Of a DNA stretch of 64,000 nucleotides, positions 2,553-41,835 are shown in pieces; position 1 is the first letter of the stretch; every line of letters begins with the position of its first letter. The notes below the pieces were generated by a model. The model was not told the DNA's origin. It saw only the letters and a list, made by a program, of their open reading frames with translations, and made no database searches. Source of the stretch: Phototrophicus methaneseepsis (GTDB lineage: Bacteria > Chloroflexota > Anaerolineae > Aggregatilineales > Phototrophicaceae); contig NZ_CP062983.1 in the NCBI RefSeq assembly GCF_015500095.1, forward strand, positions 682,001 through 746,000. The letters are read 5' to 3'. A program made the position numbers and the translations under genes.

Positions 2553-2592
2553 AAAAAGTCCACAAAAAGTCCACAATATGAAGCAATATAAT
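2553..2592 (+). promoter_or_regulatory. Probable activator-dependent promoter with two 11-bp direct repeats
   Basis: AAAAAGTCCAC occurs twice back to back at 2553-2563 and 2564-2574, with a looser copy just upstream (about 2541-2552). A perfect TATAAT -10 box follows at 2587-2592. The repeats lie where the -35 box should be, and no TTGACA-like sequence is present. OmpR/PhoB-type winged-helix regulators bind 11-bp direct repeats in this position, so this is probably a class II activated promoter for the large gene starting at 2654. The regulator is unknown. Confidence 0.6.
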
Positions 2593-2653
2593 TGATGGAT
2601 TCTCAATTTATGACGATATGCTGTGGAAAGGAGGAGAGAGAGGGACGTGTTTT

Positions 2654-5600
2654 ATGTTCAACCGCGACCTTGAACGTCAACTGGTAAGACGGGTACCGCC
2701 GCTGCGATTACGACTCACACCCAGTGGCCCCACCATCTTACGCCGAGAAGATTTACTCTACTTAAACTTCCGTTTCATAAACCTGCGCATTGTTAAAGGA
2801 CAAACGCGCATCCCACAGCTGCGACGCATCAACCCAGATAGAGAAGCCTTTATTATCATCTCCTTGCAGCCCCAGAGCATCGCAGAAGAAGCCTTTATTG
2901 AAGAAGCCATTCCATCAGACCCACCACCGCCGCCTGTGCGCGCACGGATGGCAGGACCATCACGGCTGGTTTTTACCCTGCCTGAGGGTGTCAATCATAT
3001 TCCTTATACTATCGAAAGTCTGCTCGACTGGACCCAGTTTGAACCTAGCCTAGCGGCGAACGCCCTTCCTCCAAATCCGCCGCTAGGGTTCGCTAACCGT
3101 CCGCGTCCACAGCAGCCCACCGCAACCCAGACCGCCATCGAGTTCCCCTATCGGATGATGCTCTCGCCCAACCACACCGCAGGATGGGCACATGCCCTGC
3201 AGCCCATCACATACGCCGGACGAACAGAACTCTGGCATACGCGGCTTGGCGTGTTAGCAGAAGGCATCATCGACGAAGAAGACGCCAGTACCCGCACCAT
3301 GAGGGCGATCTGGTCGCCGGATTACAACAGTACCGGGGACCCGCCGCTGCCAGAAGGGCTCGACCCTGGCGCTTTCCGCACGACATTGAAGCCAAATTGG
3401 CGACATCAGATCGTGCGCCTATCGTCTGACTTCGGCATCTGGACGGGGCGATTTGTACGGCCAGGGGGCGTTATTACGCCATCGTTTGAGCTAAGCGACA
3501 TCAGCTTCATTGAAGACATCACGCCTGTGATCCCACCGTCACTACGCGATACACATATCGCGCCAGAAGGCCCCATCACACGACGCACCTTGCGCCTGCC
3601 AGATGATGCCATCACGGAGCCTGCACAAATTGACAGCGAACTGGTGAATCGCATCCGACGCAATGGCGATAACCCGCCCATCATCTCACCCACATTGATG
3701 GATGATCTCATCGCAGGCAACCTGGAAATTGACCGGGGCATCCTCGATGACCTGCTGCCCATACTCCAATATTATGATCCTGAACCCATTGACGTCGAAC
3801 AATTTATGCTGACGTCTCAGGGGACCGCCGCCAAACTGCATGGTCAATGGGATGTCGAAGAAATCCCGACATCGCTAGGCCTGGGCCTGGATGTCACCGA
3901 TTGGCGGCACGTCGCTACGCAGGGCCGCGATCATTATGTGCGCGTGGTGCAGTTGGGGTATATCTATCCCTTCGGCCACAAGGCCGTCAAGATCACGATC
4001 ACCGAGCGCAAGTTTGAAGCGCCTAATGGGGGGAACGTCGGCGCATATCTCCGCCAGCGGTCCTTCATCGTCATCAAAGAACGCGACAAGACTTATCGAG
4101 CGAACTCATTTGAACACAATGGGCGAGAGAATCCGTTCCGTCAATTAATTCGCTTTAAGACGCTCATCACACCCAAGCTAGATGCCATCGCATCTGATGA
4201 ATATATCGGCGTCAATGACAGCGGTGCCCACTGGATCGAAGTGGGGAACAAGCCCTTTATCTTCCATCTGCAAGCTCGCGATGTCGAAGGCCAATTGATT
4301 GATTTCCATGCAGGTGGCATCTTCGTGCCTCATGGCATCCTCGGTACAGGGCTGGAAAGCCCGGTATTCAGCGCACTGAGCGCTATCTATACCAGCCATC
4401 CGATCCATGGGGCGACAGCACGGCGCGTCAAAGTGCCTAATCAGCGTGTGGCGTATGCCGAGCGCAACCCCAATAAAGATGGCAATACCCTGCTCGATAC
4501 AGAGGGCCTTTACTTCTTAGCACGAGAAGCCAACGGCGAAGCCCGTTTCCCGTTTGTACCCTTTATGGATGTCGCTGAAGTCCGCATTCCATCAGCAGAT
4601 GCTATCGCAGGCGGCCAAGGCATGCAGACAATCAAGCTGTTCCAGGAATATTTGGACAACCCACAGGGTTTGCTGGATGAGGCGGCTAACGCCGGGGGCG
4701 TCTTCGCGGAACTCGTCGCCAAGAAAGCGATTACGTTCGCTGCTGAGCAAGCAGGTGGCCTGACGACGCCCAATATCAACATGAGTGGCCTCTCCCAGGA
4801 CTTAGGCCCTGTCGCTGGGACGCTCAGTGACATCGCCAGCGGCAGCTTCGACCCGGTTGATTTCTTCAACGGTGTTTCCGCCAAGTTACTGGGCGGCATT
4901 GATCTGTTCGACATCATCCAGGCCGCGGCGGGGGCAGGCTTCAGCGATCAACTGCCCAAGCTCAACGTCAAGCCCATCCCGGAGCCACCCGCTATCCCAC
5001 AGCGGATCGAAGCAACCATGCAGTGGCAACCTGCTGTTAAGCCCTTTGGCCCCTTTGAACCCACAGGCGCGACCCAACTGACAATCGACGTCCTGCTGAC
5101 GCAGTACCTAGATAATCCCGCGACACCACCCTCATCGAAGATTGAAGGGGAACTCACCGCCTTCGATATCAACTTTGCAGACGTCATCACAATTACGTTC
5201 AACCAACTGCGCTTCATCAAAGAAGACAACAAGAAGCTCGATGTCCATGTGGACATCCCACCAGATGGTATCGTCTTTGGCGGCCCGCTTAAGTTCTTGA
5301 ACGAACTGGAAAAATATCTCGATCCAGCCTCGTTCATTGACCCGCCCGTGCTGGATATCAGCCCCTCCGGTGTGACAGTTGGCTATACCTTGCAACTGCC
5401 GCCGCTAGCGATTGGGGTCTTTACACTCAAAGATGTGGGCCTGGGTGCGGCGCTGTCGCTGCCCTTCGGTGGCGGGGTTGAAGATCGTATGCGGGTGCGC
5501 TTCAACCTATCAGAGCGGCAGGCCCCGTTCAATCTGTCGATCATGATATTCGGCGGTGGGGGGTTCTTCGCCATTTCACTCGGCGCAGATGGCCTGGAAG

Positions 5601-6001
5601 TATTAGAGATTGCGCTGGAATTCGGCGGCAGTTTCGCCTTCGACATTGGCGTTGCCAGTGGGGGAGCCAGTGCAATGGCTGGCTTCTACTTCATGCTTGC
5701 CACATCGCCCTACCGCATCGAACTTACGGCTTATCTGCGTATCAACGGCCATCTGTCCGTCCTGGGCATCATCAGCATTTCAGTCGAGTTTTATCTGGAA
5801 TTGTCTTACAAAGAATTCCCAGGCGGCAAATCCAAGCTGACAGGCCGTGCCACCGTGACGGTCAAAGTCGAGGTGCTGTTCTTCAGCGCCAGTGTCAAGC
5901 TGACTGTCGAGCGTAAATTCAGCGGCAATGCCGATGACCCAACCTTCAGCGAAATGCTGGAACCCGGCGATTGGTTCGAGTATGGCGAGGCCTTCGCCTG
6001 A
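2654..6001 (+). CDS. Very large protein of unknown function with C-terminal beta-rich repeat region (first of a pair)
   Basis: I do not recognise a named family. The product is 1115 residues from ATG 2654; an upstream ATG at 2618 is possible, but the purine-rich ribosome-binding stretch (GGAGGAGAGAGAGGG, 2630-2644) lies between the two, favouring 2654. There is no signal peptide. The N-terminal third is proline-rich with alternating beta-type segments and an RTELWHTRLGV stretch. The middle has a GRDHYVRVVQLGYIYPFGHK stretch. From about residue 900 there is a long run of alternating polar and hydrophobic strands rich in Gly, Phe and Ser (for example GGGGFFAISLG and ASGGASAMAGFYF), suggesting a beta-barrel, beta-solenoid or stacked-sheet structure. 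The next gene starts 87 bases downstream and is also giant and signal-less, so the two probably act together. A structural or self-assembling role is inference only. Confidence 0.85.
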   Translation: MFNRDLERQLVRRVPPLRLRLTPSGPTILRREDLLYLNFRFINLRIVKGQTRIPQLRRINPDREAFIIISLQPQSIAEEAFIEEAIPSDPPPPPVRARMAGPSRLVFTLPEGVNHIPYTIESLLDWTQFEPSLAANALPPNPPLGFANRPRPQQPTATQTAIEFPYRMMLSPNHTAGWAHALQPITYAGRTELWHTRLGVLAEGIIDEEDASTRTMRAIWSPDYNSTGDPPLPEGLDPGAFRTTLKPNWRHQIVRLSSDFGIWTGRFVRPGGVITPSFELSDISFIEDITPVIPPSLRDTHIAPEGPITRRTLRLPDDAITEPAQIDSELVNRIRRNGDNPPIISPTLMDDLIAGNLEIDRGILDDLLPILQYYDPEPIDVEQFMLTSQGTAAKLHGQWDVEEIPTSLGLGLDVTDWRHVATQGRDHYVRVVQLGYIYPFGHKAVKITITERKFEAPNGGNVGAYLRQRSFIVIKERDKTYRANSFEHNGRENPFRQLIRFKTLITPKLDAIASDEYIGVNDSGAHWIEVGNKPFIFHLQARDVEGQLIDFHAGGIFVPHGILGTGLESPVFSALSAIYTSHPIHGATARRVKVPNQRVAYAERNPNKDGNTLLDTEGLYFLAREANGEARFPFVPFMDVAEVRIPSADAIAGGQGMQTIKLFQEYLDNPQGLLDEAANAGGVFAELVAKKAITFAAEQAGGLTTPNINMSGLSQDLGPVAGTLSDIASGSFDPVDFFNGVSAKLLGGIDLFDIIQAAAGAGFSDQLPKLNVKPIPEPPAIPQRIEATMQWQPAVKPFGPFEPTGATQLTIDVLLTQYLDNPATPPSSKIEGELTAFDINFADVITITFNQLRFIKEDNKKLDVHVDIPPDGIVFGGPLKFLNELEKYLDPASFIDPPVLDISPSGVTVGYTLQLPPLAIGVFTLKDVGLGAALSLPFGGGVEDRMRVRFNLSERQAPFNLSIMIFGGGGFFAISLGADGLEVLEIALEFGGSFAFDIGVASGGASAMAGFYFMLATSPYRIELTAYLRINGHLSVLGIISISVEFYLELSYKEFPGGKSKLTGRATVTVKVEVLFFSASVKLTVERKFSGNADDPTFSEMLEPGDWFEYGEAFA

Positions 6002-6088
6002 TCAGAACCCGGTACGGCACACTGCAAATGAGATCGCCGCTGGTGCACAGCATCAAAGCAGCGTCAGCGCAGCGAGGGAGATATAAAA

Positions 6089-9000
6089 ATGGCAACAGAA
6101 ACGATTTTATGGACGGCAATACCCAATGGCATCATCACGACAGAGAACGGACGTCGTATCGCGCGTATCTCCGTTGTGGCCTCTCATCGGCTGGAAGCAC
6201 CGGAGGCTGAGGGCGATACACTCAGCCTCTACCGAATCACCCGCCATTGGACGCGCGTTGTGGCAGATATGCTGCAAGGCTTTATCGTACGCATGGATGG
6301 GATTGATATTGAAGCACGACTGATAAATCGGGCGATACTCGGGCCAGAGTGGTGGGAAGGCATGTTCAATGATGACACCTTCGTACGGCCCTATGCTTAC
6401 AATGACCTGACCGATAAGCTCATCATCTCATACCCGACAATACGCATCCGTGAGTACATCAAGAAAATTTATCAGCAGGTCGGCTTTGAATCACCAAATG
6501 AGCTGCCCGATGTCTACGGAAGGCGCAAGCCAGGTTCAACCGGGAACTCGGTATCCTTACCCAGTTTCCCTTTCAACAAAGAGATCGCAGCGGGTATGCG
6601 CGCGGAGATGAAGGCTGCGCTCAATGACACACCGTCCTCACCTTCTGAAAACATCGCCAGTTTGACCGCTGCCCCCGTCACAGGTGATCCTGTGCGCGAT
6701 ATGCAGCAGTTGATGCTCTTTCACTATCCAGCGAATAAGCTGGCGACCACCCTGGAGGAGGATAAAGCCAACGAAACCATCATGGCACCGCCCCTGCCCA
6801 GTACGGAAGAAGACTTCGAGCGATATATGGATTTTCACGAGGTCATCTCCTCCCTGGGCGATTATCCGGTGCTGATGCGCCGCCTGGGGCTGGTGATTGA
6901 TATTGGCTTCCCCATAGAGGACCTGCCCGGTAATCCGTTTGCAATCCAGGTCGCGCCTGTCTGGGGTGAAGATCGTATTGCCGACAACCTGATTTCTGAG
7001 CATCCGCGTACAGTGGTCGACTGGGACCCGCCAACGGGTGTTTTCCGGTCACGTTCAAGAGACGGTATCCCGGCTATACAACGCGGCCAACTAGCCATCA
7101 ATCCCAATGAAACCAACTTTGACCTCGTACAGGTCGATGTAGATGGCGTGGCGATCAAGCTAGCGAACTTCTTCAACGGCGTTCACAATACGGCGAACGA
7201 AAATATGCTCGCTGCCGATAGTCCCCGTAACCAGGGCTTCCCGACGATTCGCTCTGCGGGATTCTCGCTCAACGAAACAGCCCGCGACCTGCTCACCTAT
7301 ATGCACTTTAACAAGACGAAGTCCGACAATGACCAGCTCATAGCAGGCGGGGGTATGGACCTCCTTCTCTATGCAGAGGATTTACTGCGTGGCTATCGTG
7401 TCGACATTTGGGATACCCTCACTCGTGACTGGCATTCACTATGCCGCCGCATCGGCAGTTATGTAATCGAAGGTACCGATCTGGTCATGGAAGATGTGGC
7501 CGATGAAGGCTTCGCACAAATGGCGATGTCCCAACCTGCGGAGACTGAAGAAGGGCAGCCACCTGCCACCGACGATATTTATCTCCATGAATCTATGTTC
7601 CGGTGGGATGGTTGGAGCCTTGTCGCGCCACGCCCTGGCAAGACCATTGGCGAGCAGGGCGACGGTAGTCCTGCTGTTGATCCTGAACCACAGCCGATGA
7701 TGCCCTTCAAGCTGATTACCCAGTTCCGGGCAGCGCCGCGCAGCCTGCCCCGCCTGCGCTTCGGCGCAGGTTACCGGATGCGCGTCCGTGTCGCGGATCT
7801 CGCCGGGAACAGCGTTTCGCTCAACGACGCAGCCAACGACTTATCGGCCCCCTCCGCACCGGATAAGCCAGAAGTCTACTATCGTTATGAGCCGCTCAGC
7901 CCGCCTTCTATCTTCCCACTGGCAGCAATCACGGAAGATGACCCCGGTGAATCTGTGCGGCATATGGTCATCCGCAGCTTTAATCAGTCGCCAGAACTGG
8001 ATAACGTAACCAGCGCCGATGTCAACGAGCGACATATCGCGGCACCACCCGCCAGCGTCCTCATGGCGGAGATACACGGTGCATTCGATGATCTACAGGG
8101 CCGCCTCAAAAACGACCCGGCGACCTATAATCTCATCTCAAGCCGCGATAACCCCGTAAATGTCGATGAAACCAGCACGCCTATCATCCCCGATGCACAA
8201 ATGATCCTGAATTACCTGCCGGACCCGCTGGCAATGGGTGCTGCTATCCGTGATTTACCCGGTACGACCAATAAAACATGGGGCAAAGTCGATGACGCGG
8301 GCCAGCTCCTCTATGAAGATGTTCCCGGCGTGCTGCCGCGTGAAGGAACGACAACCCACATTCCCTTCTTACCGACCGAAGACCCGGTTTATCCTGATGG
8401 ATTGATCGCACTATACACCTTTGAAGATGGCGAAGGCGATGTCGTCCATGATGTCTCTGGCAGTGCCAACCCGGTCAATTTGACCATCGCTGACCCGGCC
8501 AATGTGACATGGGGCAGCCATGCTCTGACTATTGACGCGCCCACAATCATCAGTACTGGCAGCGCCCCCACAAGCCTGATGGCTGCATTACAAACGACCC
8601 ATGAAGTCAGCGTGGAAATGTGGGTACAGCCCGCCAGCGACAGTCAGTCTGGCCCGGCGCGCCTGATGTCGCTCTCAGCGGATACGAGTAATCGTAACCT
8701 GATGGTAGGACAAAGCCCTGGGGGCGGTGGGGATGCGCGTAGCTATGCAGCTCGCGTCCGCACCACAGCGACAGATGCAAACGGCCTGCCAACGCTGTTC
8801 ACGCCAGATAACATCGCCACCACAAACCTGACGCATATCGTCTTCACACGAGATCAGGCCGGCACACGCACACTCTACATTGATGGGGTAACGGTCGTCA
8901 GCGATACAGTCGGCGGCGATTTCTCGAATTGGGATATGGATTTCCGGCTGGCGCTCGCCAATGAATTCACCGGGGACCGCCCATGGTTGGGCACCTACCA

Positions 9001-10888
9001 CATGCTCGGCATCTATAACCGCGCTTTGCCTGTTGATGAAGTGCTGGCACACTTCAACAATGGCACTTCACTGCCGATGATGCCGCCTGATGCTTTTGAT
9101 CGTCTGCTGGCGAATATGCCCTTCCGCATTGCTATCGCGGAGCACGAAAGCGGGACTTTCGCTCTGCCAGGTTGGGATCATGAAGCCCGCGTGCTGAATA
9201 TCTATCTACCCAAGGCAGAAGACATCCGGCGACCTATCAGCACGTATATGCACGCTGAACATCTCAAGCTCATGGGCGTCTGGGCCTGGATACGCGAACA
9301 CATCGACAAAGAAACCCAGTTGGCTCTTTCCAACCCGGCCCTGCTGGAATCGCTGACGAAGAAAGTTGTCGATTGTGTGCAATATGCGCTGGAAGGCGGC
9401 CATTGGATGATCACCCCTTCCCGCCAATTGGCGATGGTCCACGCGGTACAGCAGCCTATCGGCCAACCTAATATCGTTGCTATGCTTGCACAACGCGATG
9501 TCGACGCGACCAACAGCGAATTCGGCGCAATTATCCAGGTTCATGGCAAAAGCACCCTGACGCTCAATCTGCTGGCCCGATGGACGGAAAATGTGGATGA
9601 TCTCAATGAAGTTGGTCCGACGCTCAAACACGCCTCGGAAGCCGTTGAAGAGATTAAGATCAGTTCCCTAGAAGGGGGCACCCTTAAGAGCACCAAGCTA
9701 AAAAATGGTTTCCCGCAGAATGTAGGGACATATCAGCCTGCTCAGGATTGGGTGCTGCTGCAAAAGGGTATTTCTCCAGAGCATGAATTTGGCGATACCA
9801 AACACCGCGAAGTTGATTATCACATCGTTGCAGGCTCTCGCTTCCGCGAATACTTCCCGGCGAATGTGGAAGGGGGCTTCACGCGGGATACCAACACGGT
9901 CAGCGTACACGTGCCCAGTTCAGCACGACCAGCCGCGCCACGCGTGCGCTACATGCTGCCGACCTATGGCTGGAAGCGCGAAGAAACCACCAATATCATC
10001 GGCAGTTATCGTCAGGGCGGCGGCCTGCGCGTGTATATGGATCGTCCGTGGTTTTCTTCCGGTGATGGCGAACTGCTCGGCGTCGTCTTGTGGCAGGGCT
10101 CCAACCTCAGCAATGCGGACCGCCATACGCTGAAGCGTTATATCACCCAGTGGGGTATTGATCCGATCCATGTCTCGGAGAATATCGCGCCTCTGCCGCA
10201 TATCCATAACTTCCCCAACAGCGTCCGCACAATGAGCGATCTGCATGTGCCGGAACTGGCAGGCATCAACGTCGGCGCGGGCGATAACCCCATAACTGTC
10301 GTTGGCTTCCCGGTTCACTATAACGAGGAGCGCGGCCTATGGTTCTCAGATATTGACATTAACATGGGCGAGCAAGTGCCATATATGCCGTTTGTAAGGC
10401 TGGCACTGGTACGCTTCCAGCCCTGGTCAGTGGAAGGCATGCACCTATCGCCTATCGTGCTGGCAGATTTCGCCCAGATCGCACCAGATCGTTCAGCCAT
10501 CCTCACCTGGGACCCCTATGAGGCAGATATGCTCAATCTGGTGGTCTCCGGTTATACCTATCGTCAATCAGCCGCCTATAATCACGTTGGGTTTGATGGC
10601 AATCAACCTATCACAGTACCCATAAATGATGGTACGGAAATTGTCGTGCAGGTTCAGGAGCGCGATCCAGACCTGGATGATGAACTGGCATGGAGCAACA
10701 TCAGCACAGCTATCAATGTGCTGCAAACCAATGCCAGCCAGAATGTGCTCTGGCAGGGGCGCATCCGCCTGCCAGCCGACCGTGAACCGGGGCAGTATCG
10801 TGTCGTCATCACGGAGCTGGAACGCCTTTATACGCATTCCGGCACGCGCCAACCGCGCCTCGTGTATGCTGATACAATCGAAGTTTAA
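6089..10888 (+). CDS. Giant LamG-containing protein of unknown function (second of a pair)
   Basis: This 1599-residue protein follows the 1115-residue protein after 87 bases, with a GGGAG-type ribosome-binding site (6075-6080) before the ATG. No signal peptide or membrane segment is visible. Residues about 768-990 form a concanavalin-A-like LamG domain, running from GLIALYTFEDGEGDVVHDVS through LYIDGV to LGIYNRALPVDEVLAHFNNG; such domains bind glycans or mediate protein contacts. The N-terminal part (1-760) and the C-terminal part (990-1599) are unassigned. The latter includes the distinctive stretch GGGLRVYMDRPWFSSGDGEL and looks like several beta-sandwich modules. A strong terminator 38 bases after the stop closes the two-gene unit. 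It could be a large structural, adhesive or tail-like component, but nothing in the sequence shows secretion or catalysis. Confidence 0.87.
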   Translation: MATETILWTAIPNGIITTENGRRIARISVVASHRLEAPEAEGDTLSLYRITRHWTRVVADMLQGFIVRMDGIDIEARLINRAILGPEWWEGMFNDDTFVRPYAYNDLTDKLIISYPTIRIREYIKKIYQQVGFESPNELPDVYGRRKPGSTGNSVSLPSFPFNKEIAAGMRAEMKAALNDTPSSPSENIASLTAAPVTGDPVRDMQQLMLFHYPANKLATTLEEDKANETIMAPPLPSTEEDFERYMDFHEVISSLGDYPVLMRRLGLVIDIGFPIEDLPGNPFAIQVAPVWGEDRIADNLISEHPRTVVDWDPPTGVFRSRSRDGIPAIQRGQLAINPNETNFDLVQVDVDGVAIKLANFFNGVHNTANENMLAADSPRNQGFPTIRSAGFSLNETARDLLTYMHFNKTKSDNDQLIAGGGMDLLLYAEDLLRGYRVDIWDTLTRDWHSLCRRIGSYVIEGTDLVMEDVADEGFAQMAMSQPAETEEGQPPATDDIYLHESMFRWDGWSLVAPRPGKTIGEQGDGSPAVDPEPQPMMPFKLITQFRAAPRSLPRLRFGAGYRMRVRVADLAGNSVSLNDAANDLSAPSAPDKPEVYYRYEPLSPPSIFPLAAITEDDPGESVRHMVIRSFNQSPELDNVTSADVNERHIAAPPASVLMAEIHGAFDDLQGRLKNDPATYNLISSRDNPVNVDETSTPIIPDAQMILNYLPDPLAMGAAIRDLPGTTNKTWGKVDDAGQLLYEDVPGVLPREGTTTHIPFLPTEDPVYPDGLIALYTFEDGEGDVVHDVSGSANPVNLTIADPANVTWGSHALTIDAPTIISTGSAPTSLMAALQTTHEVSVEMWVQPASDSQSGPARLMSLSADTSNRNLMVGQSPGGGGDARSYAARVRTTATDANGLPTLFTPDNIATTNLTHIVFTRDQAGTRTLYIDGVTVVSDTVGGDFSNWDMDFRLALANEFTGDRPWLGTYHMLGIYNRALPVDEVLAHFNNGTSLPMMPPDAFDRLLANMPFRIAIAEHESGTFALPGWDHEARVLNIYLPKAEDIRRPISTYMHAEHLKLMGVWAWIREHIDKETQLALSNPALLESLTKKVVDCVQYALEGGHWMITPSRQLAMVHAVQQPIGQPNIVAMLAQRDVDATNSEFGAIIQVHGKSTLTLNLLARWTENVDDLNEVGPTLKHASEAVEEIKISSLEGGTLKSTKLKNGFPQNVGTYQPAQDWVLLQKGISPEHEFGDTKHREVDYHIVAGSRFREYFPANVEGGFTRDTNTVSVHVPSSARPAAPRVRYMLPTYGWKREETTNIIGSYRQGGGLRVYMDRPWFSSGDGELLGVVLWQGSNLSNADRHTLKRYITQWGIDPIHVSENIAPLPHIHNFPNSVRTMSDLHVPELAGINVGAGDNPITVVGFPVHYNEERGLWFSDIDINMGEQVPYMPFVRLALVRFQPWSVEGMHLSPIVLADFAQIAPDRSAILTWDPYEADMLNLVVSGYTYRQSAAYNHVGFDGNQPITVPINDGTEIVVQVQERDPDLDDELAWSNISTAINVLQTNASQNVLWQGRIRLPADREPGQYRVVITELERLYTHSGTRQPRLVYADTIEV

Positions 10889-10925: not shown

Positions 10926-10954
10926 AAAGGCTCTCATCTAATGAGAGCCTTTTT
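10926..10954 (+). terminator. Rho-independent terminator of the giant-protein operon
   Basis: AAAGGCTCTCAT (10926-10937) pairs perfectly with ATGAGAGCCTTT (10941-10952) across a 3-base loop and runs into a T tract. Because the stem begins with As, it can also serve the convergent UspA-like gene. Confidence 0.9.
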
Positions 10955-11006: not shown

Positions 11007-11516
11007 TTATGGGACTTCGACAGGGGATGGCTTTTCCGCTGTATGAGCAGCTTCCGGCACCTTGACGCGCGCAGGCACCCAATCGATGCTCCGCGTGGTT
11101 TCATCAACCAGATAAAGCGGGCAATCGGCTGTCTGCACAGCCTTCATCAGCCACCACGCGTTCATTTGATTCCACCAGCCATAGCGGCTATCCGGCTTCT
11201 TGGCGAAGATCGCGCATGCATTAAGGTTCACACGCACCTGCTGAAGCGCTGCCCTGTAAGTCACATATTGCATTTGATGCAAAGAACAGTCGACGCCGTA
11301 ATCTTCACAAATCAAGCTATATTCATAAATCTGGGCACACTGCTGAGAAGAAAGAGGCGGGGTCGCCACCTCTGAACCGAGCAAACCGGGATTACGCGCC
11401 AAGTTTAAAGACAGTAAAACAATACGTGACCGGGTATGACGTGCCAGGGCTGATGCCAGATGTAGCGCTTGAGTGGTCCATCTGGGTTCCTCTAATTGAA
11501 CCACGATATTTCTCAT
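11007..11516 (-). CDS. UspA-like (universal stress protein) single-domain protein
   Basis: The 169-residue product starts MRNIVVQLEEPRWTTQALHLA, the beta-strand plus helix opening of universal stress proteins, followed by SRIVLLSLN as the second strand. No signal peptide or membrane span is present. The usual C-terminal ATP-binding glycine motif is not evident; instead a CPLYLVDETT strand ends the fold, so nucleotide binding is doubtful. It is transcribed away from the regulator and KimA-like transporter genes next to it. KdpD sensor kinases normally contain a Usp domain, which the nearby KdpD-like kinase lacks; this protein might supply that function in trans (inference). Assignment to the Usp fold is moderately sure, the role is not. 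Confidence 0.7.
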   Translation of the reverse strand: MRNIVVQLEEPRWTTQALHLASALARHTRSRIVLLSLNLARNPGLLGSEVATPPLSSQQCAQIYEYSLICEDYGVDCSLHQMQYVTYRAALQQVRVNLNACAIFAKKPDSRYGWWNQMNAWWLMKAVQTADCPLYLVDETTRSIDWVPARVKVPEAAHTAEKPSPVEVP

Positions 11517-30405: not shown

Positions 30406-32691
30406 CTATGGCTCGATGCGCTCCAGACCGTATAAGCCCACATCAATATATTGTTTGAGCGGCCCAACGGGTGGCGCAAAAGAGGGCTGATAGGCGTGCA
30501 CAGCCAGGACATTTTCCCCTATGTGCAGTAACGTGCCGTCGCTGTCGCTCACTGGCAGTTCAACATATCCTGTTGTTGAAAGTGGCAGCCGAGCAATAGA
30601 CACGCCATTGAGGAAAACCTCAGCATCTTCGATATGATGCACGCGCAGATAGAGATCATAAGCCCCGACCTCATCGGCACTCACGGTAAAAATTTGTCGC
30701 AGCCAAATTTGCGGCTGCTGCCATTCCGTCCGAACCATGCTCGATGGCTCTGTCGAGAACCCAAACCCGCCAGCCTGCGAAACCCACGCACCATCGTCAA
30801 ATTCAACATCTGACCAGGACGCATCAGGCATCTCGTTGGTGACCAACCAGTTGACGCCCTCAACCTCCGACGTAGGGACGAAAGTATAGCGCTGTGGGAC
30901 GGGTTCATATAAAGCCTGGTTAACGGACGCCACCGCGTCCACATCCATTTTGATGATGTCACGATCATAGGTCATCATGCCGTTGACCTCGATTTCAACA
31001 TCCGTCGTTTGGGTATATATCGCAGCCGCTAACCCGCGCTTTTCAATGAGTTCTCGTAAATGGCTAATCAGTTCCGTATAGGCCGTCAGCATGGCTTCGG
31101 CGTTGGTATAATCTCGGTAACCCCAATTGGCTTCTGTCTGCCAGGTATGCCCACTGAGCGGCAACCCCAATCCGCCGAATTCGCCCAGGACGCTGGCGCG
31201 GTCAGGGTCTGTTGGCGGCGCATCTGGCCCAGGATAAGCGTGCATATCCAGCACATCGCCTGCACCGGCATCCGTCCAGCCGCTGGCATTATTCACAAGG
31301 CGCGTCGGATCAAGTTCCGCGACCCAATCGCTAATGCGGACGGTATCGTACTGCCCCCAGCCTTCATTAAACGGCACCCACATAACAATAGACGGGTGAT
31401 TGTAGAGGCCCTCTACCATGCGCTGCATTTCCTGCTCAAATTGTGCCGCAGAAGCATCATCATGGCTAAACGGATCGACAGACGTCATAAAAGCACCTGG
31501 CATATCCTGCCAGACGAGGACACCCAACCTATCCGCCCAGTAATACCAGCGCTCTGGCTCGACTTTGACGTGCTTACGAATCGTATTGAAGCCTAACTGC
31601 TTCGTCGCTTCGATGTCATAACGCAGGGCCTCATCCGTAGGGGCCGTATACAGGCCGTCCGGCCAGAAGCCCTGGTCCAGCAAACCATATTGGAACAAGG
31701 GTTCCCCATTGAGGAAGAGCCGCCATTCGTCATTGCCATCACGCTCTAAGGAGATTTTCCGCATGCCGAAGTAGCTAGATACCGTATCCACGACACCACC
31801 ATCCTTGTCGAGCAGGTCTATCTGCACATCGTAGAGGAAGGGGGAGTCCGGCGACCACAACTCCGGCGATTCAATTGGCAGCGATAGCACAAACTGGCCC
31901 GCGTCAGGCTCAGCCGTTTGCGCAGTGGCGACCTCTGTTTCATCGTCCATCACCACAGCCCGCAGACTGCTGCCATCCATGGCCCCAGCAACTTCAACGA
32001 TCACCTCGACGTGGCTATCGTCCAGGTTGGGGGTCAGCTTCAGGGTGTGGATTGCGGTATCGGGCACAGGTTCCAGCCAGACCGTCTGCCAGATGCCCGT
32101 TGTCGGCGTGTACCAGATGCTTTGCGGATCGCGGATTTGCTTACCACGTGGCTGTGCCCCGCTGTCAGTTGGGTCTAGAACGCGCACGATGAGTTCCTGC
32201 TCGCCATCTTCTGCCAGGGCATCCGTAAGATCAAAAGAAAATGCGTCATACCCACCGCGATGTGTCCCCAGTTCAACCCCATTAAGCCAGACAGTCGCTT
32301 CCCAATCGACAGCGCCAAAATGCAGCAGAACATGGTCAGTCCATGTCTCTGGTACTGTGAACGTCCGTCGATACCACAGCGCCTCATCATTTACGCGCGC
32401 CTGCACCCCAGAGAGATAAGACTCTATCGGGAAGGGGACGAGGATGTCGCCCTGATAACTCTCAGGCGTCGCGGCATCCGGGGCTGTGAGGGCATAATCC
32501 CACAGCCCGTTCAGGTTTAGCCAGTCATCACGCACCATCGATGGACGCGGATACTCCGGCAAAGCATGATCCGGCGAGACATCATCGGCCCAGCGCGTCA
32601 CCAGAGGCCCTTCCTGCGCGCTAAGCTGCCCACCAAAGACAGCAATCAATAGAGCAATCCAGAGTACCCACACCATCTGTTTTTTCATCAC
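30406..32691 (-). CDS. Exported glycoside hydrolase family 2 enzyme
   Basis: The 761-residue product has a signal peptide ending GGQLSA-QEG, then the GH2 sugar-binding beta-sandwich (LNLNGLWDYAL, WYRRTFTVPETW), an immunoglobulin-like domain, and a TIM barrel with the acid/base Glu443 in PFNEGWGQ and the nucleophile Glu504 in VLGEFGG. A further C-terminal beta-sandwich module (about residues 625-757, IWLRQIFTV and YDLYLRVHHIEDAEVFLNG) resembles a second sugar-binding domain. It lies last in the leftward operon that starts with an importer, and acts outside the cytoplasm. GH2 covers beta-galactosidase, beta-mannosidase and beta-glucuronidase; the sequence does not settle the specificity. An ATG one codon later is equally possible. 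Confidence 0.92.
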   Translation of the reverse strand: MMKKQMVWVLWIALLIAVFGGQLSAQEGPLVTRWADDVSPDHALPEYPRPSMVRDDWLNLNGLWDYALTAPDAATPESYQGDILVPFPIESYLSGVQARVNDEALWYRRTFTVPETWTDHVLLHFGAVDWEATVWLNGVELGTHRGGYDAFSFDLTDALAEDGEQELIVRVLDPTDSGAQPRGKQIRDPQSIWYTPTTGIWQTVWLEPVPDTAIHTLKLTPNLDDSHVEVIVEVAGAMDGSSLRAVVMDDETEVATAQTAEPDAGQFVLSLPIESPELWSPDSPFLYDVQIDLLDKDGGVVDTVSSYFGMRKISLERDGNDEWRLFLNGEPLFQYGLLDQGFWPDGLYTAPTDEALRYDIEATKQLGFNTIRKHVKVEPERWYYWADRLGVLVWQDMPGAFMTSVDPFSHDDASAAQFEQEMQRMVEGLYNHPSIVMWVPFNEGWGQYDTVRISDWVAELDPTRLVNNASGWTDAGAGDVLDMHAYPGPDAPPTDPDRASVLGEFGGLGLPLSGHTWQTEANWGYRDYTNAEAMLTAYTELISHLRELIEKRGLAAAIYTQTTDVEIEVNGMMTYDRDIIKMDVDAVASVNQALYEPVPQRYTFVPTSEVEGVNWLVTNEMPDASWSDVEFDDGAWVSQAGGFGFSTEPSSMVRTEWQQPQIWLRQIFTVSADEVGAYDLYLRVHHIEDAEVFLNGVSIARLPLSTTGYVELPVSDSDGTLLHIGENVLAVHAYQPSFAPPVGPLKQYIDVGLYGLERIEP

Positions 32692-32722
32692 ATCACCTTA
32701 CTGTGTAACAGCTTTATGAAAC

Positions 32723-34753
32723 TTACTGATTGTTCTTCTGCAACCACTTTTGCCAGATTTCCGGTTTGTACAGCAGCGGCATATACACGCCACCAACAAC
32801 CGGGCGCGCCTGGAAGCCAACTTGCTTACCACTATCGGTATAGTACCAATCGTTGAGCGGAACGCGGCTTTCGGTTTCGTTCATCCATTTATAAACCGGC
32901 TCAATGAATGTCTGGAAGTCCTCGTCTGTTTCGGCAAGGGTCGCCGTCCAGACAATCCAGTCGAGCTTGGTATAGGTGCTGCGATTATCGAGCGGCAGGC
33001 CATAGCGCCCCTGCTTGGTCTTATAGTAGGCGATTTCTTTCTGGGCCACTTCCGCCGGGAACAGGTTCAACCCGAGCAGCTTATCCCAGACGATGTTGTA
33101 CTTCTGGCTCCAGGTATCGGCTTGGTCGAAGGTCAGGCGATAATGATCGCCATTATCGGCCATCTCCTGCCACTGCTGAACCATCTGTTCAGCCTGTGCG
33201 CGATAAGAAGCCGCTTCTTCATTCAGGCCGCGTGCCTCGCATAACCAGGCATAGGCCCCAATGCCCATAATCGCTTTGAGCGACAGGTTGACGTTATGGG
33301 CCAGATGCCCCGCAAAGTCATCCGTGCAGAGCTGGTTTTCAGGGTCAAGGCCCTTTTCGCTGAGGTAAGCTGCCCATCCACTGAGCGCATCCCAATAGCG
33401 TTCTGCATAACCGGTATCACCATCGACCTGGCATATTGCCGTCAGGAGCACGAGCATATTGCCACATTCTTCGATAGGCATCTGGTTGAGTTCGGATTTT
33501 TCACCACCGCCGTAGACCTGCCCGTTCCCAAGCGGGTAACGACCGATATCATGCGGCGCAAAGGGGAATTTCCACCGCGGAGACATCACGTAGTCCATAA
33601 TGGGCGTAAGCTGGCCGCGCAGCAGTTCAGGATTGAACAGTAAGAAGAAGGGGCTGGACGGGTAGAAAATATCGACGGTATCCATGCAGCCATTGCTGAA
33701 GTTCTCTTTAGAGAAGAACAGCGGCGTGCCGTCCAGGTCTGCGGTTAACTTGTGCCCACCAATACATTGCCGGAACGCTAACGCGCCCAGAGCGGCGAAG
33801 GCATCCCCACCAACCGCACGCATATCTGCCATGAGTTCAGCGTCATAGTCCTGGCATACCTGCCGCAGCGTATCCGCTTCGTTGAGCGCGGCTTCTAGCA
33901 TGTCCATCAGGCTCGCGCCATTGCGCCGCCAGTACGGGCGCAGCTTACGATACATATACTCAACCGAGAAAATGTCATCATAAGCGATGATTAACTGCCG
34001 CGTGACAGGCCCTGTTACAGAGCCTAAATCAAAGCCCCACGCAGAGACGACCATCGGCGGGCGATTATCAACCGGGCGCGGCATCTCCGCATCATCCCGG
34101 TTGGGCATCTCGCCCGTGAGGGCAAACTGCGGGCGAGTTTCCGTATCATTACCTAATACCGCCCGATACGCACCGTCGCCGCTGCTCAGGGTATAGAGGT
34201 AACCCCAATCAATGCGCAGATCATCGCCGGATTTACCCAGGATATCCTGCTCTGTTGAGCCCATCCACAGCACATCACGATCATTGAGGCGATGCCGCCC
34301 CCACACGATACGCTGCTCAACAGTGTTCACCACCCAATCGGAGCCAATGTCGAAATACAACGCGACATCATGCGCCTGCCCATCCATAGGTTCGACATCA
34401 AAATCGACATAGGTCACGGGCCGCGACATCACATCGAGATCGTGCGGCAGCAAAGGCGTCACAAAGGTCAGCGCCAGTTGAATCCCTGCCGCTTCGAACT
34501 GGTAAATAGTCCGCGTCGGGAGGACCTCAACGCTCGTCTGCGTCATGGCCGGGATGTCGATACCATAATGCCGGGTGCTCAGGCCCATGAAGCGATACGC
34601 CTGCCCATCAATGCGCAGCATACCGAATAAGGTCTGGCGTGTCCCTGTCCAGTGGGATGTCCAGCGTTCAGTCAATGTATCCGTGGTCGACCACACACTC
34701 ATATAGGGGTCGTTGACGACCAAGGGTACCGCGGGTGGACGTAGTTGATTCAT
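32723..34753 (-). CDS. DUF4965/DUF1793-type glutaminase-like (probable glycan-active) protein
   Basis: The 676-residue product begins LRPPAVPLVVNDPYMSVWST, the typical DUF4964 start, followed by a beta-sandwich (DUF5127-like) and an alpha/alpha barrel (DUF4965/DUF1793) with FPFAPHDIGRYPLGNGQVYG, EECGNMLVLLTAI and QKYNIVWDKLLGLNLFP. Relatives include fungal secreted glutaminase A, but bacterial members sit mostly in glycan-utilisation loci and their activity is poorly known. No signal peptide is present. It lies between two GH2 genes (31-37 bases from each) in one operon, so a glycosidase-type role is more likely than glutamine hydrolysis (inference). Confidence 0.85.
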   Translation of the reverse strand: MNQLRPPAVPLVVNDPYMSVWSTTDTLTERWTSHWTGTRQTLFGMLRIDGQAYRFMGLSTRHYGIDIPAMTQTSVEVLPTRTIYQFEAAGIQLALTFVTPLLPHDLDVMSRPVTYVDFDVEPMDGQAHDVALYFDIGSDWVVNTVEQRIVWGRHRLNDRDVLWMGSTEQDILGKSGDDLRIDWGYLYTLSSGDGAYRAVLGNDTETRPQFALTGEMPNRDDAEMPRPVDNRPPMVVSAWGFDLGSVTGPVTRQLIIAYDDIFSVEYMYRKLRPYWRRNGASLMDMLEAALNEADTLRQVCQDYDAELMADMRAVGGDAFAALGALAFRQCIGGHKLTADLDGTPLFFSKENFSNGCMDTVDIFYPSSPFFLLFNPELLRGQLTPIMDYVMSPRWKFPFAPHDIGRYPLGNGQVYGGGEKSELNQMPIEECGNMLVLLTAICQVDGDTGYAERYWDALSGWAAYLSEKGLDPENQLCTDDFAGHLAHNVNLSLKAIMGIGAYAWLCEARGLNEEAASYRAQAEQMVQQWQEMADNGDHYRLTFDQADTWSQKYNIVWDKLLGLNLFPAEVAQKEIAYYKTKQGRYGLPLDNRSTYTKLDWIVWTATLAETDEDFQTFIEPVYKWMNETESRVPLNDWYYTDSGKQVGFQARPVVGGVYMPLLYKPEIWQKWLQKNNQ

Positions 34754-34790
34754 TACAGGTACTGCCTTTCGTTAAATGAACGAATGCACC

Positions 34791-36581
34791 TTATCGCTCG
34801 ATAGCCGCTGGCTTAATCTGCGCGTTGCGGATGCGGTCCATATCGAACTTCTGGCTGCGATCATACTTATAGATACCATTCTGTTCTTGATAGATGTCCG
34901 TAAGCTGGGTATAGCAATAACCGAACATATTCACATCATCAAGGAGAATCCAACACAGTTTTTCAAAGCGATCATAGAATTCCTCAATGGAAGTGGGTCT
35001 GTTGCCATACCCCCAGGAATCTTCGCCTTCTTTTACATCCGGGTTCCACCAGATACCCCCAAACTCACTGACAAAGTAAGGCTGCCCTTGATACGGTACA
35101 GACCAGCTTATGCTTTTGTCTTCATCATGGCCATTGATATAGGGGTCATCGTTTGCAAGGCCAGCATGACGCGCTGCAAAAGTATCCGGGTCCTGGGTGT
35201 AATCATGGCTATCATACACATCCGCAAAAGGAACACGATGCGAATAGCCGGATGTATCCAGCACAGGGCGGGTCGTATCCATCGCTTTTGCTGCTAGGTA
35301 CATGCCTTGTGTGACGTCATCCAGCATGGTGATACGGTCCGTGATGCGCTGCCAGGTTTCGTTCAGGGGGCACCAACCGATGATACTCGGATGGGAATAA
35401 TCGCGTTCCAGCACTTCTAGCCACTGCGTGATGTAGTCTGCGCCGGGCCTCTGGTGTTCGTCATCTGGCCGGCCCATATGGCTACAGCCCCAATCGCCGA
35501 ACTCACCCCATACGAGGTAGCCCAAGCGATCCGCGTGATACAAGAAGCGCTCTTCAAAGACCTTCTGATGGAGGCGAGCACCGTTAAAGCCAGCGGCCAT
35601 ACTCAATTCAATATCGCTGATGAGGTCTTCGTCGCTGGGTGCCGTCATAATGCCATCAGGGTAATAACCCTGGTCCAGCACCAAACGCTGAAAAACTGGT
35701 TTGCCATTGATCTTGATGGCTTTTCCGTCGATGGCGATGCTGCGCAGGCCCGCATAGCTGGTCACGGTATCCACCACATGACCCTCACCATCAATCAGGC
35801 TGATTTCAATATCATAAAGATGCGGGTCCTCTGTAGACCACAGGCGGCGACGATCCGCAGGAATGGGCAAATCAATACGCGGGGAAAGCTCCACATCAGC
35901 CGCACACTCTGCCGTGACGACTTCGCCATTTTCATCCTTTAGAACGGCTTTCAAGCGGAAGCCGGGGGCGTTGTTGCTCAGAGGCTGCTCCAGGCGGAAG
36001 ACGCTATTGGTGACGTCCGGGGTAATACGCGGACGGCGCAGGGCAACCATCGGCACAGGCTCCAACCAAACCGTCTGCCAGATGCCCGTTGTACGCACAT
36101 AAATCGCACCCTCTGGGCCGAATAGGCGGGCTTGTTTGCCACGTGGCTGTGGCGGAAGATGGCTGTCACGGGCACGGACTGTAATCGTTACTTCGCTGCC
36201 GGGTGTGGCTGCTGCCGTTATATCACACGTAAACGGCGAAAAGCCGCCCCGATGACGCCCGACTTCCACATCATCAACCCATACGGTTGCGTCATAATCC
36301 ACAGCCTGGAAATGCAGCAGCACTCGCTGCTCGGCCCACTGAGAAGGAATCGTCACCGTCCGGCGATACCATACGGCTTCCAGATAGTCGAGATTTTCAA
36401 TACCGGATAATTTGCTCTCTGGTGCGAACGGCACAACGATGTGGCTGTCCAGATCGCGTTGGAGCAAGCCACGTTCAAGGCCACTGTCTCCCTGGTCAAT
36501 CTCAAACTGCCATTCGCCATTCAGGCACAACCAGTCCGATCGTACAAATTGTGGGCGAGGATACTCGCTGCGAGGAATCAT
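34791..36581 (-). CDS. Cytoplasmic glycoside hydrolase family 2 enzyme
   Basis: The 596-residue product starts at ATG 36581, preceded by AAGGAGC; an ATG seven codons earlier has no site. It opens MIPRSEYPRPQFVRSDWLCL and has the sugar-binding, immunoglobulin-like and TIM-barrel domains of GH2, with acid/base Glu408 in CPLNETWQ and nucleophile Glu506 in VSEFGGIWW. No signal peptide is present, unlike the paralogous GH2 enzyme at the end of the same operon, so the two probably act in sequence inside and outside the cell. It follows the binding-protein gene by about 210 bases. Exact sugar specificity is unknown. Confidence 0.92.
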   Translation of the reverse strand: MIPRSEYPRPQFVRSDWLCLNGEWQFEIDQGDSGLERGLLQRDLDSHIVVPFAPESKLSGIENLDYLEAVWYRRTVTIPSQWAEQRVLLHFQAVDYDATVWVDDVEVGRHRGGFSPFTCDITAAATPGSEVTITVRARDSHLPPQPRGKQARLFGPEGAIYVRTTGIWQTVWLEPVPMVALRRPRITPDVTNSVFRLEQPLSNNAPGFRLKAVLKDENGEVVTAECAADVELSPRIDLPIPADRRRLWSTEDPHLYDIEISLIDGEGHVVDTVTSYAGLRSIAIDGKAIKINGKPVFQRLVLDQGYYPDGIMTAPSDEDLISDIELSMAAGFNGARLHQKVFEERFLYHADRLGYLVWGEFGDWGCSHMGRPDDEHQRPGADYITQWLEVLERDYSHPSIIGWCPLNETWQRITDRITMLDDVTQGMYLAAKAMDTTRPVLDTSGYSHRVPFADVYDSHDYTQDPDTFAARHAGLANDDPYINGHDEDKSISWSVPYQGQPYFVSEFGGIWWNPDVKEGEDSWGYGNRPTSIEEFYDRFEKLCWILLDDVNMFGYCYTQLTDIYQEQNGIYKYDRSQKFDMDRIRNAQIKPAAIER

Positions 36582-36791
36582 TCTATGCTCCTTGTTAGGC
36601 ATTCTGGGATTTGTTGTCGATAGAGGGGGTGAATTGCCATTGAGATAACATCAACTTCTGTAAAGATCAACTTCTATCAATGAAAAATGCTTCTTAGCGT
36701 GATTGATCATGATGTGTTTCATCATGAACTATTTCATAAAGAAAAAGGGAACACAGCAACGATCGCTGTGTTCCCCAAAGCGTAACTTTCT

Positions 36792-38102
36792 TTACTGGCC
36801 GAAGGCCGCGAAGTCATCGAAGCGTGACTGTGCATCCGCAAGGGCTTGTTCTGCGGATTTGTCACCCAGTACAGCAGACTGGATTTCTTCGTTCATGATG
36901 TCTTCGAAGGCGGTCACCCAGTTCAGGCGCGGCATCGGGACAGCTTCTGTGCTGAAGTTCGCATATTCGCCGCGATGCGGGATCGCTTCGAAGTCAGCGG
37001 ATTCCAGGAAGCTCTTGTTCACCGGGACGTGACCTGTGTAGGCCCATGCGCTGTTATGTTCGTTCATCCACGACAGGAACTTCATCACGCGATCAATGCG
37101 TTCCGGATCGGGGTTCAGGCCGAGCGGGACAATCATCGCGTGGGTGCTGGACCACGTTGCCGGTTGATCGAAGAACTGCGGGAAGGACGTCACATAGAAG
37201 CGTTCCAGCGGAATATCTGGCGAAGCAGCCTGTGCATCGATGTTGTTAACCTGCCATGTACCTTCGCGCGTGCTGCCGGTCAGGTTGTTGGCGAATGCTT
37301 CAACGCGATCAGTCGCGCCGGTTTCAGATGACATCACGCCATCATAAACAGACAGGATCAGTTCCAGAGCAGCCAGGCCTTCTGGCGTGTTGACAGTCGG
37401 GTTACCAGCATCATCCTGAATGGTGCCACCTTGCTGATAGACAAGTGCCATCCAGTCGCGGGACATATCGGTACCACCCGCCGGGAATTCGAAGAAGGGC
37501 ACGCCTGTCGCATCATAGAAGGTCTGTGCAGCCGCACGCCAGTCATCGACGTTGGTGGGGATAATCGGCATGCCGTTTTCGTCCAGCATACCAGCCTGTT
37601 CCCACAGGTCGAGGTTGATGTAATACAGATGGCCGTGAACATCCAGCGGGATACCGTAAAGCTGGTCTTCATAGCTCACATAAGAGCGGGCTGTATCTGT
37701 GAAGTCATTGATATCAATGCCGTATTGCTCTAAATAAGGATCCAGCGGCGTCAGCAAACCACGGGAAGCATAGTTCGGGATACGAATACCGTGCAGAATC
37801 ATGACGTCCGGGGCATCACCAGCAGCCAGACGTGTATTGAGTTCTGTGTAACCAGGCCAATCCACAACGGTGGTCGTCACAGCGTTGTCAGGATTTTCTG
37901 CGTTATAAGCGTTCGTCATAATCTGGATGATTGAGCATTCACCCGCAAAGTTGCTGGGATCACTCAGATCGGCGATATCGCTGTATTCATCTTCGCATTC
38001 ACCGAAGAAACGCATAAACTCGATAGGTTCCTGTGCCGTTATCGGGCTGATGGCTAATGCGAGTAGCAGCAGCATCGAAAGGAATACGGTTGTTTTTTTC
38101 AT
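36792..38102 (-). CDS. Sugar-binding protein of a second ABC importer
   Basis: The 436-residue product has a signal peptide ending AISPITA-QEP without a lipobox, then a family 1 solute-binding fold: FMRFFGECEDEYSDI, the TRLAAGDAPDVMILHG stretch, ASRGLLTPLDPYLEQYG and YGIPLDVHGHLYYINLDLWEQAG. It is the third gene of a leftward operon after two permeases, followed by a GH2 enzyme, a DUF4965 protein and an exported GH2 enzyme, so it probably binds an oligosaccharide released or further cut by these. The distance to the preceding permease gene is about 104 bases. Confidence 0.92.
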   Translation of the reverse strand: MKKTTVFLSMLLLLALAISPITAQEPIEFMRFFGECEDEYSDIADLSDPSNFAGECSIIQIMTNAYNAENPDNAVTTTVVDWPGYTELNTRLAAGDAPDVMILHGIRIPNYASRGLLTPLDPYLEQYGIDINDFTDTARSYVSYEDQLYGIPLDVHGHLYYINLDLWEQAGMLDENGMPIIPTNVDDWRAAAQTFYDATGVPFFEFPAGGTDMSRDWMALVYQQGGTIQDDAGNPTVNTPEGLAALELILSVYDGVMSSETGATDRVEAFANNLTGSTREGTWQVNNIDAQAASPDIPLERFYVTSFPQFFDQPATWSSTHAMIVPLGLNPDPERIDRVMKFLSWMNEHNSAWAYTGHVPVNKSFLESADFEAIPHRGEYANFSTEAVPMPRLNWVTAFEDIMNEEIQSAVLGDKSAEQALADAQSRFDDFAAFGQ

Positions 38103-38206
38103 TGTAAAATCCTCAAATCGTATTAAATTGCTAAAACAGGTGCTAACTAACAGGAAGTGGCAATAAATTTCTCCTCCCTTATATCGCTTGTTACGAACAA
38201 AGTTTG

Positions 38207-40011: not shown

Positions 40012-40017
40012 TTCCAC

Positions 40018-41670: not shown

Positions 41671-41835
41671 GCCGATCAGAAACCCCTCATTATCCAATTT
41701 ATTTATAAAGCATGTAGTAGAAGCAGAAAACGTCCCGCGTGATATTGCGAGAGGTTCATGCTTGCTACCTGATGCTGCTAGCAGCTTATCAATCGGTTTG
41801 ACGCATAACCGAATAGAGCACACACGGGGTATTTC

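What the first reader, a model, noticed from the sequence alone, without database searches (positions are those of the whole stretch)
2654..10888. Two-gene operon of giant, signal-less, beta-rich proteins of unknown function
Two adjacent genes on one strand encode 1115 and 1599 residues, with their own promoter and terminator and no other gene in the unit. Neither has a signal peptide or membrane span. The first ends in a long Gly/Phe/Ser-rich alternating-strand region, the second carries a central LamG domain among unassigned modules. Size, pairing and lack of known catalytic motifs suggest a large cytoplasmic assembly, a tail- or shell-like structure, or an unconventional export substrate. 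I know no named system with this pair.
Basis: partly seen in the sequence, partly recalled or inferred. Interest (0 to 1): 0.82.

Follow-up and report, generated by a model that had tools for sequence, protein, structure and literature searches.

The report
Mobile giant-protein pair, often Tat-exported
Two giant bacterial proteins that match no described family are encoded side by side in very different bacteria, and in many of them the first carries an export tag, in a few next to a gene for part of the matching export channel, so the pair probably works outside the cell as one large complex.

Summary
The two genes are real: A, 2654-6001 (1115 aa), and B, 6089-10888 (1599 aa), same strand, ending at a strong terminator. 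Neither has a signal peptide or membrane span; apart from LamG in B, no Pfam, NCBIfam, PHROG, PADLOC or PDB match has E below 0.02. The pair is no local oddity: in 77 of 80 related loci from 13 named phyla B directly follows A, and in the other 3 the contig ends. The 90%-identical relative shares only 2564-10887 with the window, so the pair moves as a two-gene cassette. The main clue lies in relatives: A carries a twin-arginine (Tat) signal in 37 of 87 intact A ORFs (shuffled expectation 0.3), B in 0 of 80. TatA-like genes were found in 7 of 93 loci, each beside the pair; 6 of these loci have a Tat signal on A, the seventh could not be judged. Best reading: in many lineages A and B form a folded complex exported by Tat that works outside the cytoplasm, with variable lectin/Ig modules binding a ligand. 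The window's own copy has no signal, and no TatC was found in its genome, so its route is unknown. Activity unknown.

The parts
2654..6001 (+). gene A, 1115 aa, no signal peptide in this copy
   Evidence: ORF; aligned with 73 relatives; no Pfam/NCBIfam/PADLOC match at E up to 1, PDB best E 0.5
5426..5926 (+). A residues 925-1091: region of alternating amphipathic strands with the GGGGFF block
5972..5998 (+). A residues 1107-1115: conserved C-terminal motif W..Y..AFA after a variable linker, read as a docking helix (inference)
   Evidence: strict pattern in the last 30 residues of 78 of 90 A ORFs
6089..10888 (+). gene B, 1599 aa, no signal peptide
   Evidence: ORF; aligned with 64 relatives
8582..9043 (+). 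LamG (Laminin_G_3) domain of B, residues 832-985, in an insert shared only with the nearest relative
   Evidence: long insert here in 2 of 65 B rows (window and L060)
10926..10952 (+). intrinsic terminator, 12-pair stem
2564..10887 (+). stretch shared with L060 (80% DNA identity), flanks without similarity: the two-gene cassette

Best explanation
A and B are two subunits of one large, horizontally spread protein complex that works outside the cytoplasm. In many lineages A carries a Tat signal. A and B fold and bind each other in the cytoplasm (probably helped by A's conserved C-terminal W..Y..AFA tail), and B rides out with A through the Tat translocase; some lineages encode a TatA of their own next to the pair. 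Outside, the amphipathic beta region of A and the core of B form a scaffold, and exchangeable modules (LamG in the window, Ig-like Big_3_5 in some actinomycetes, a repeat domain in some cyanobacteria) bind a sugar, surface or other ligand, so that the complex acts as an adhesive or ligand-binding coat. The window's lineage has lost, or never had, the Tat signal, and must keep the complex inside or release it by another route. Shown: pairing, Tat motifs, TatA-like genes, modules, conserved tail. Inferred: physical complex, co-export, adhesion.
For: B directly follows A in 77 of 80 loci, the other 3 being contig ends. A and B distances correlate, r 0.87 over 63 loci (best of 1000 permutations 0.22). 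Strict Tat motif in 37 of 87 intact A ORFs (shuffled 0.32) and 0 of 80 B; after dereplication at 70% identity 25 of 61 (shuffled 0.6), against 15 of 940 other ORFs over 300 aa in the same loci. TatA-like genes in 7 of 93 loci, all beside the pair: 13, 13, 40, 44 and 21 bp after B, 228 bp and about 1.1 kb before A; 6 of 42 loci with a Tat signal against 0 of 44 without, p 0.011, relatedness not corrected. LamG and Big_3_5, E 6e-22, modules typical of extracellular proteins (recalled). Conserved A tail.
Against: 44 of 86 loci, the window's among them, show no Tat signal, and 36 of the 42 with one have no TatA-like gene beside the pair. No TatC was found in the window's genome (95.7% complete), although 27 of 27 other carriers tested have one, in one case only a fragment below cut-off; L060's genome has TatC although its A has no signal. 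Only 4 of 10 tested N-termini match TIGR01409, 1 above its cut-off. AB is about 300 kDa, and a Tat review gives cargo up to 150 kDa (PMC6708511, passages), so co-export may exceed what Tat carries. No structure, no proof of A-B binding, no generally recurrent third gene of 90 aa or more.
Confidence: 0.5

Rival explanations
1. Large intracellular assembly (shell, scaffold or tail-like body). Tat signals in some relatives are a secondary use, and the window copy shows the basic, cytoplasmic state.
For: No signal in the window copy or in 44 of 86 loci; some signal-free A start right at the conserved core (L062, L073); no TatC found in the window's genome.
Against: Tat signals are spread over the A tree (at least 6 changes forced by starred branches), some with TatA-like genes beside them. 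Signal-free members still carry LamG or Ig-like modules (window, L067, L095, L106). No shell or tail profile matches.
Confidence: 0.2
2. Two-component secreted antagonistic complex acting on neighbouring or host cells.
For: Sporadic, partly plasmid-borne, horizontally spread pair; giant size; binding-type modules.
Against: No variable toxin end seen: the ends of A and B are conserved in most members. No toxin, protease or pore family among the Pfam matches shown for 64-74 members (lists capped at 25 families). No generally recurrent third gene.
Confidence: 0.12
3. Lipid carrier or bridge: the long one-sided hydrophobic sheet of A forms a groove like that of TamB/AsmA proteins.
For: Strong strand alternation and the highest mean hydrophobicity at A 925-1091 and 925-1008; an amphipathic-helix-like insert in some A (Apolipoprotein match of an L042 stretch, E 0.002, far below its cut-off).
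Against: No profile similarity to TamB or AsmA, but the test is blind: TamB and AsmA do not find each other either.
Confidence: 0.1
4. Cargo or accessory part of an extracellular contractile injection system.
For: gp19-type tube genes in 18 of 40 carrier genomes against 67 of 301 genomes of the window's phylum, p 0.003; a gp19-like ORF, below the family cut-off, beside the pair in L140.
Against: The comparison is confounded by phylum; within the phylum 3 of 8 carriers against 64 of 293, p 0.38. Around both gp19 hits of the window's genome I saw no injection-system cluster, by eye. The L140 gp19-like protein has no second copy among the locus ORFs; the loci were not otherwise searched for injection-system genes.
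Confidence: 0.05

Closest known systems
Tat 'hitchhiker' complexes (e.g. PaoABC; PMC4273604, start of abstract seen in a listing)
   Same: One partner bears the twin-arginine signal, its co-encoded partner has none
   Different: Those are redox enzymes (recalled); here neither protein matches an enzyme family and the pair is about 300 kDa or more
Substrate-linked extra TatA genes (Campylobacter jejuni tatA paralogues, PMC4148689, start of abstract seen; Bacillus phoD-tatAd, recalled)
   Same: A TatA paralogue tied to particular Tat substrates
   Different: Here the TatA-like gene sits beside a giant two-protein unit, and no TatC gene was found in the loci searched
LamG / Big_3_5 extracellular binding proteins
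   Same: Share these modules
   Different: The modules are add-ons of a few lineages; the A and B cores matched no family
DUF6603 (PF20248)
   Same: Large proteins with Gly/Phe-rich hydrophobic strands (by eye)
   Different: No profile relation: hhalign probability 2.7% and 4.2%

Membership tests
Tat substrate: the window's own A | N-terminal twin-arginine motif followed by a hydrophobic stretch | tested here: not met
   no strict motif; not filed as a Tat substrate
Tat substrate: A relatives | N-terminal twin-arginine motif followed by a hydrophobic stretch | tested here: met
   met in 37 of 87 intact A ORFs, 25 of 61 after dereplication; the rest not. TIGR01409 above cut-off in 1 of 10
Tat substrate | TatC in the same genome | tested here: inconclusive
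   27 of 27 other carriers, one (L068's genome) only a fragment below cut-off; 0 in the window's genome, 95.7% complete
Tat substrate | TatC-dependent export shown by experiment | not testable with these tools
   -
Tat hitchhiker complex (Tat-signal loci only) | Signal on one partner only, partners co-encoded | tested here: met
   B 0 of 80 with a Tat motif; 77 of 80 loci paired
Tat hitchhiker complex (Tat-signal loci only) | Physical A-B complex before export | not testable with these tools
Phage tail / contractile injection system part | Match of A or B to tail or injection-system profiles | tested here: not met
Phage tail / contractile injection system part | Location in such a gene cluster | tested here: inconclusive
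   only L140 lies near phage genes (capsid, portal, protease, terminase), separated by other ORFs; the other loci were not searched for such genes beyond
TamB/AsmA lipid-groove proteins | Profile similarity | tested here: inconclusive
   negative; positive control 116 also negative
DUF6603 | Profile similarity | tested here: not met
Anti-phage defence system | PADLOC match | tested here: not met
   best E 0.064

The most novel reading that the evidence does not exclude
The pair is a mobile export module of unusual size: A and B (about 300 kDa together; A alone about 330-360 kDa in S. meliloti, A. vitis and Ruegeria plasmids, at 110 Da per residue) cross the membrane folded through a Tat translocase widened by a private TatA encoded in the same cassette, to build a ligand-binding complex outside the cell. 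That would be well above the cargo size quoted for Tat.
Probability: 0.25. Interest if true: 0.85.

Novelty: categorically new. Interest (0 to 1): 0.66.

Why it matters
A two-gene unit present in 13 named phyla, in two very large proteins, for which I found no family model, structure or paper (searches in Tried and rejected) is an untouched system rather than a stray ORF. If the Tat reading holds, loci with A, B and TatA give a natural test of how large a folded cargo Tat can carry and whether a substrate-specific TatA sets that limit. The signal-free half of the family would pose the reverse question: how the same pair is used without Tat. 'Categorically new' refers to the protein families and the gene system; the export step itself would be a known kind.

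Tried and rejected
PDB by sequence and by profile: nothing of weight. Pfam over the members of the four half-alignments: scattered weak matches, no family in more than 5 members (first 25 families shown). DUF6603, which I recalled as similar: no relation. TamB/AsmA: no relation, but the control fails too. A versus B, and the two halves of B: no relation. Injection-system link: enriched in a confounded comparison, not within the phylum, dropped. A virus origin: the only IMG/VR contig found (L140, fetched again as L141) has capsid, portal, protease and terminase genes at one end and the pair at the other, with other ORFs between, so I read it as DNA flanking a prophage or gene-transfer agent (inference). 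Recurrent neighbour of 90 aa or more among five ORFs on each side: no family in more than 6 loci, mostly close relatives; that screen was too coarse to see the TatA-like genes.

Papers: searches (listings and starts of abstracts) and passages of PMC6708511; none of what I saw describes the pair. One search used a locus tag guessed from memory and has no weight.

Full report
WHAT IS IN THE WINDOW. The window lies at G000:C1:682001-746000 of a one-contig 5.63 Mb genome. Gene A (2654-6001, 1115 aa from the second ATG; 1127 aa from 2618) and gene B (6089-10888, 1599 aa) are the only evident genes between minus-strand ORFs at 3-1958 (651 aa) and 11007-11516. B ends at a terminator with a 12-pair stem at 10926-10952; no promoter-like site above chance was found. 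Neither protein has a membrane span or Tat motif by the tests used. Pfam sees only LamG in B (residues 832-985, E 2e-18); elsewhere in NCBIfam, PHROGs, PADLOC and PDB nothing has E below 0.02 except a PHROG virion protein that matches the LamG region.

THE PAIR IS CONSERVED. In 301 genomes of the window's phylum, A was found in 11 and B in 11 at E <= 0.001. Seven genomes carry substantial parts of both, two of them (G053, G075) with two copies. Of the other A hits, G278 lies on a 3 kb contig, G137 at a contig end, and G111 and G253 are tiny; the four other B hits (G144, G161, G167, G241) lie in the LamG region. One scan of 84,980 genomes with one short peptide pattern returned 115 relatives of A, of which the best 80 were kept, so these numbers are lower bounds. 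In 77 of the 80 an ORF B follows A on the same strand, sometimes cut by the contig end; in the other 3 (L097, L101, L123) the contig ends 94, 85 and 519 bases after A. With mechanical starts most gaps are under 35 bases or overlap. Of the 80 loci 70 could be assigned to a phylum, 13 phyla in all. Plasmids of Streptomyces, Rhizobium, Cupriavidus, Diaphorobacter, Sinorhizobium, Agrobacterium and Ruegeria carry it too (13 records for A, 14 for B of 72,556, two of the B hits in the LamG region only); none of 50,697 phage records matched. Pairwise distances of A and B agree (r 0.872 over 63 loci; best of 1000 permutations 0.218; the nearest relative is the same by A and by B in 41 of 63).

IT MOVES AS A UNIT. 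The nearest relative (L060, an Anaerolineaceae MAG, 90% identity in A) shares DNA with the window only over 2564-10887 (L060 is held with about 10 kb upstream and 5 kb downstream of the pair). Over all loci no third gene of 90 aa or more recurs in more than 6 loci. The A tree mixes phyla (FastTree).

THE TAT SIGNAL. A strict test (S/T/N/D/G-R-R, hydrophobic residues, uncharged hydrophobic stretch) finds a Tat signal in 37 of 87 intact A ORFs, 50 without; shuffled N-termini give 0.32 on average, and B gives 0 of 80 (L043 counts as two ORFs; four ORFs cut by contig ends were set aside; L053-L056 and L017 were left out as duplicates or fragments). A slightly looser test that searches up to the conserved core finds 31 of 71 among the aligned A, 25 of 61 after dereplication at 70% identity and 18 of 39 at 50% (shuffled 0.6 and 0.5), 0 of 80 B and 15 of 940 other ORFs over 300 aa of the same loci. 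Two further plasmid A proteins (L142, L189) start with such signals. The curated TIGR01409 model is less generous: 4 of 10 N-termini match at E up to 0.1, 1 above its cut-off. On the tree the label changes at least 6 times. The window's copy and L060 have none.

TATA BESIDE THE PAIR. S. meliloti L048 has an annotated tatA just after B. I searched the ORFs of 35-200 aa in 93 loci (window, eight plasmid loci L042-L049, L142-L144, L060-L140) with that protein. It gave itself and five more at E up to 0.05: L143 4e-16, L072 3e-7, L066 4e-5, L124 0.006, L068 0.02. A profile of these six, which match it by construction, added one, L125, E 9e-21. All seven lie beside the pair: L068, L124, L125, L048 and L143 at 13, 13, 40, 44 and 21 bases after B, L066 at 228 bases and L072 at about 1.1 kb before A. 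They come from Bacillota, Actinomycetota, Rhizobiaceae plasmids and the L066/L072 clade, so about four lineages. Six of 42 loci with a Tat signal have one, 0 of 44 without (p 0.011, relatedness not corrected). The 42 are the 37 plus L074, L100, L110, L112 and L102, which passed only the hydropathy screen; L143 was not counted because no intact A was found there. No TatC was found among the ORFs of the loci (L142-L144 not included). TatC is present in 27 of 27 other tested carriers (in L068's genome only a fragment below cut-off at a contig edge) and was not found in the window's genome, where a TatA-like gene does exist. L060's genome has TatC although its A has no signal.

ANATOMY. A: variable N-terminus (Tat signal; an extra region of about 300-400 aa without Pfam match in L066 and of similar length in about 20 members, partly an effect of mechanical starts; repeat-like in cyanobacterial L061 and L063, weak Pfam matches), conserved core, a slot after residue 774 that holds 50-210 extra residues in 8 of 74 rows (an L042 stretch there has a weak Apolipoprotein match, E 0.002), a C-terminal region of alternating strands (26-40% of windows above the null at 925-1091), a linker and a conserved end W..Y..AFA (78 of 90 by a strict pattern; of the 12 misses 8 are near variants such as DWxxYCLAYA, 3 are the giant plasmid forms and 1 is L091). 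B: starts at once with a conserved stretch, has no signal, and holds add-on modules: LamG in a slot after residue 761 (window and L060 only, 2 of 65 rows) and Big_3_5 Ig-like domains at the end in L067, L106 and L095 (E 6e-22, 4e-17, 5e-15).

NEIGHBOURS. In three actinomycete loci (L108, L110, L116) a gene of one family follows B on the same strand and its product starts with what I read by eye as a Sec signal. The same holds, by eye, for small proteins after B in L047, L142 and L049. This points outwards again but was not tested with a predictor.

READING. Pairing, Tat signals on A only, TatA-like genes beside some such pairs, and modules of extracellular type make an exported two-subunit complex the best account of the family (0.5). 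The adhesion or ligand-binding role is inferred from the modules only. The size is the weak point: about 300 kDa for A plus B (110 Da per residue, recalled rule), against 'up to 150 kDa' in a Tat review (PMC6708511, passages). Either Tat carries more than that here, or A and B cross separately, or B is not exported. For the window's own copy, no signal and no TatC found mean that the route is unknown; it may stay inside.

WHAT COULD NOT BE DONE. No structure was obtained. Sequence-profile tests against lipid-groove proteins were uninformative because the positive control failed. The counts rest on six-frame ORFs with first-start calls, not on curated gene starts.

Noticed in passing
window 30406-44826: Glycosidase-rich stretch: two GH2 proteins, a glutaminase-A-like (GtaA_6_Hairpin/DUF5127) protein and a GH38 alpha-mannosidase.
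   Followed up: no
G000 whole genome: TatA-like gene at C1:5000250 but no TatC match in a one-contig, 95.7% complete genome.
   Followed up: partly
G000:C1:5596788-5597177 and C1:1988972-1989229: gp19-type tail-tube genes without an evident injection-system cluster around them, by eye.
   Followed up: partly
G000:C1:1433907-1434599: Second protein in the same genome with a domain 39% identical to the LamG part of B; possible donor pool of the insert.
   Followed up: no
L142 22484-30645: Agrobacterium vitis plasmid: the pair lies next to annotated dpdE-dpdH genes.
   Followed up: no
L108, L110, L116, directly after B: Homologous genes of 409-419 aa whose products look secreted follow B in three actinomycetes.
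   Followed up: partly
L049 (Ruegeria plasmid): Largest A seen (3311 aa), with zinc-dependent phospholipase C and M35 peptidase genes nearby.
   Followed up: no
L061, L063 N-terminus of A: Cyanobacterial A carries an extra N-terminal repeat domain with weak Pfam matches (DUF5050 in L061, W_rich_C in both), lectin- or propeller-like by eye.
   Followed up: no
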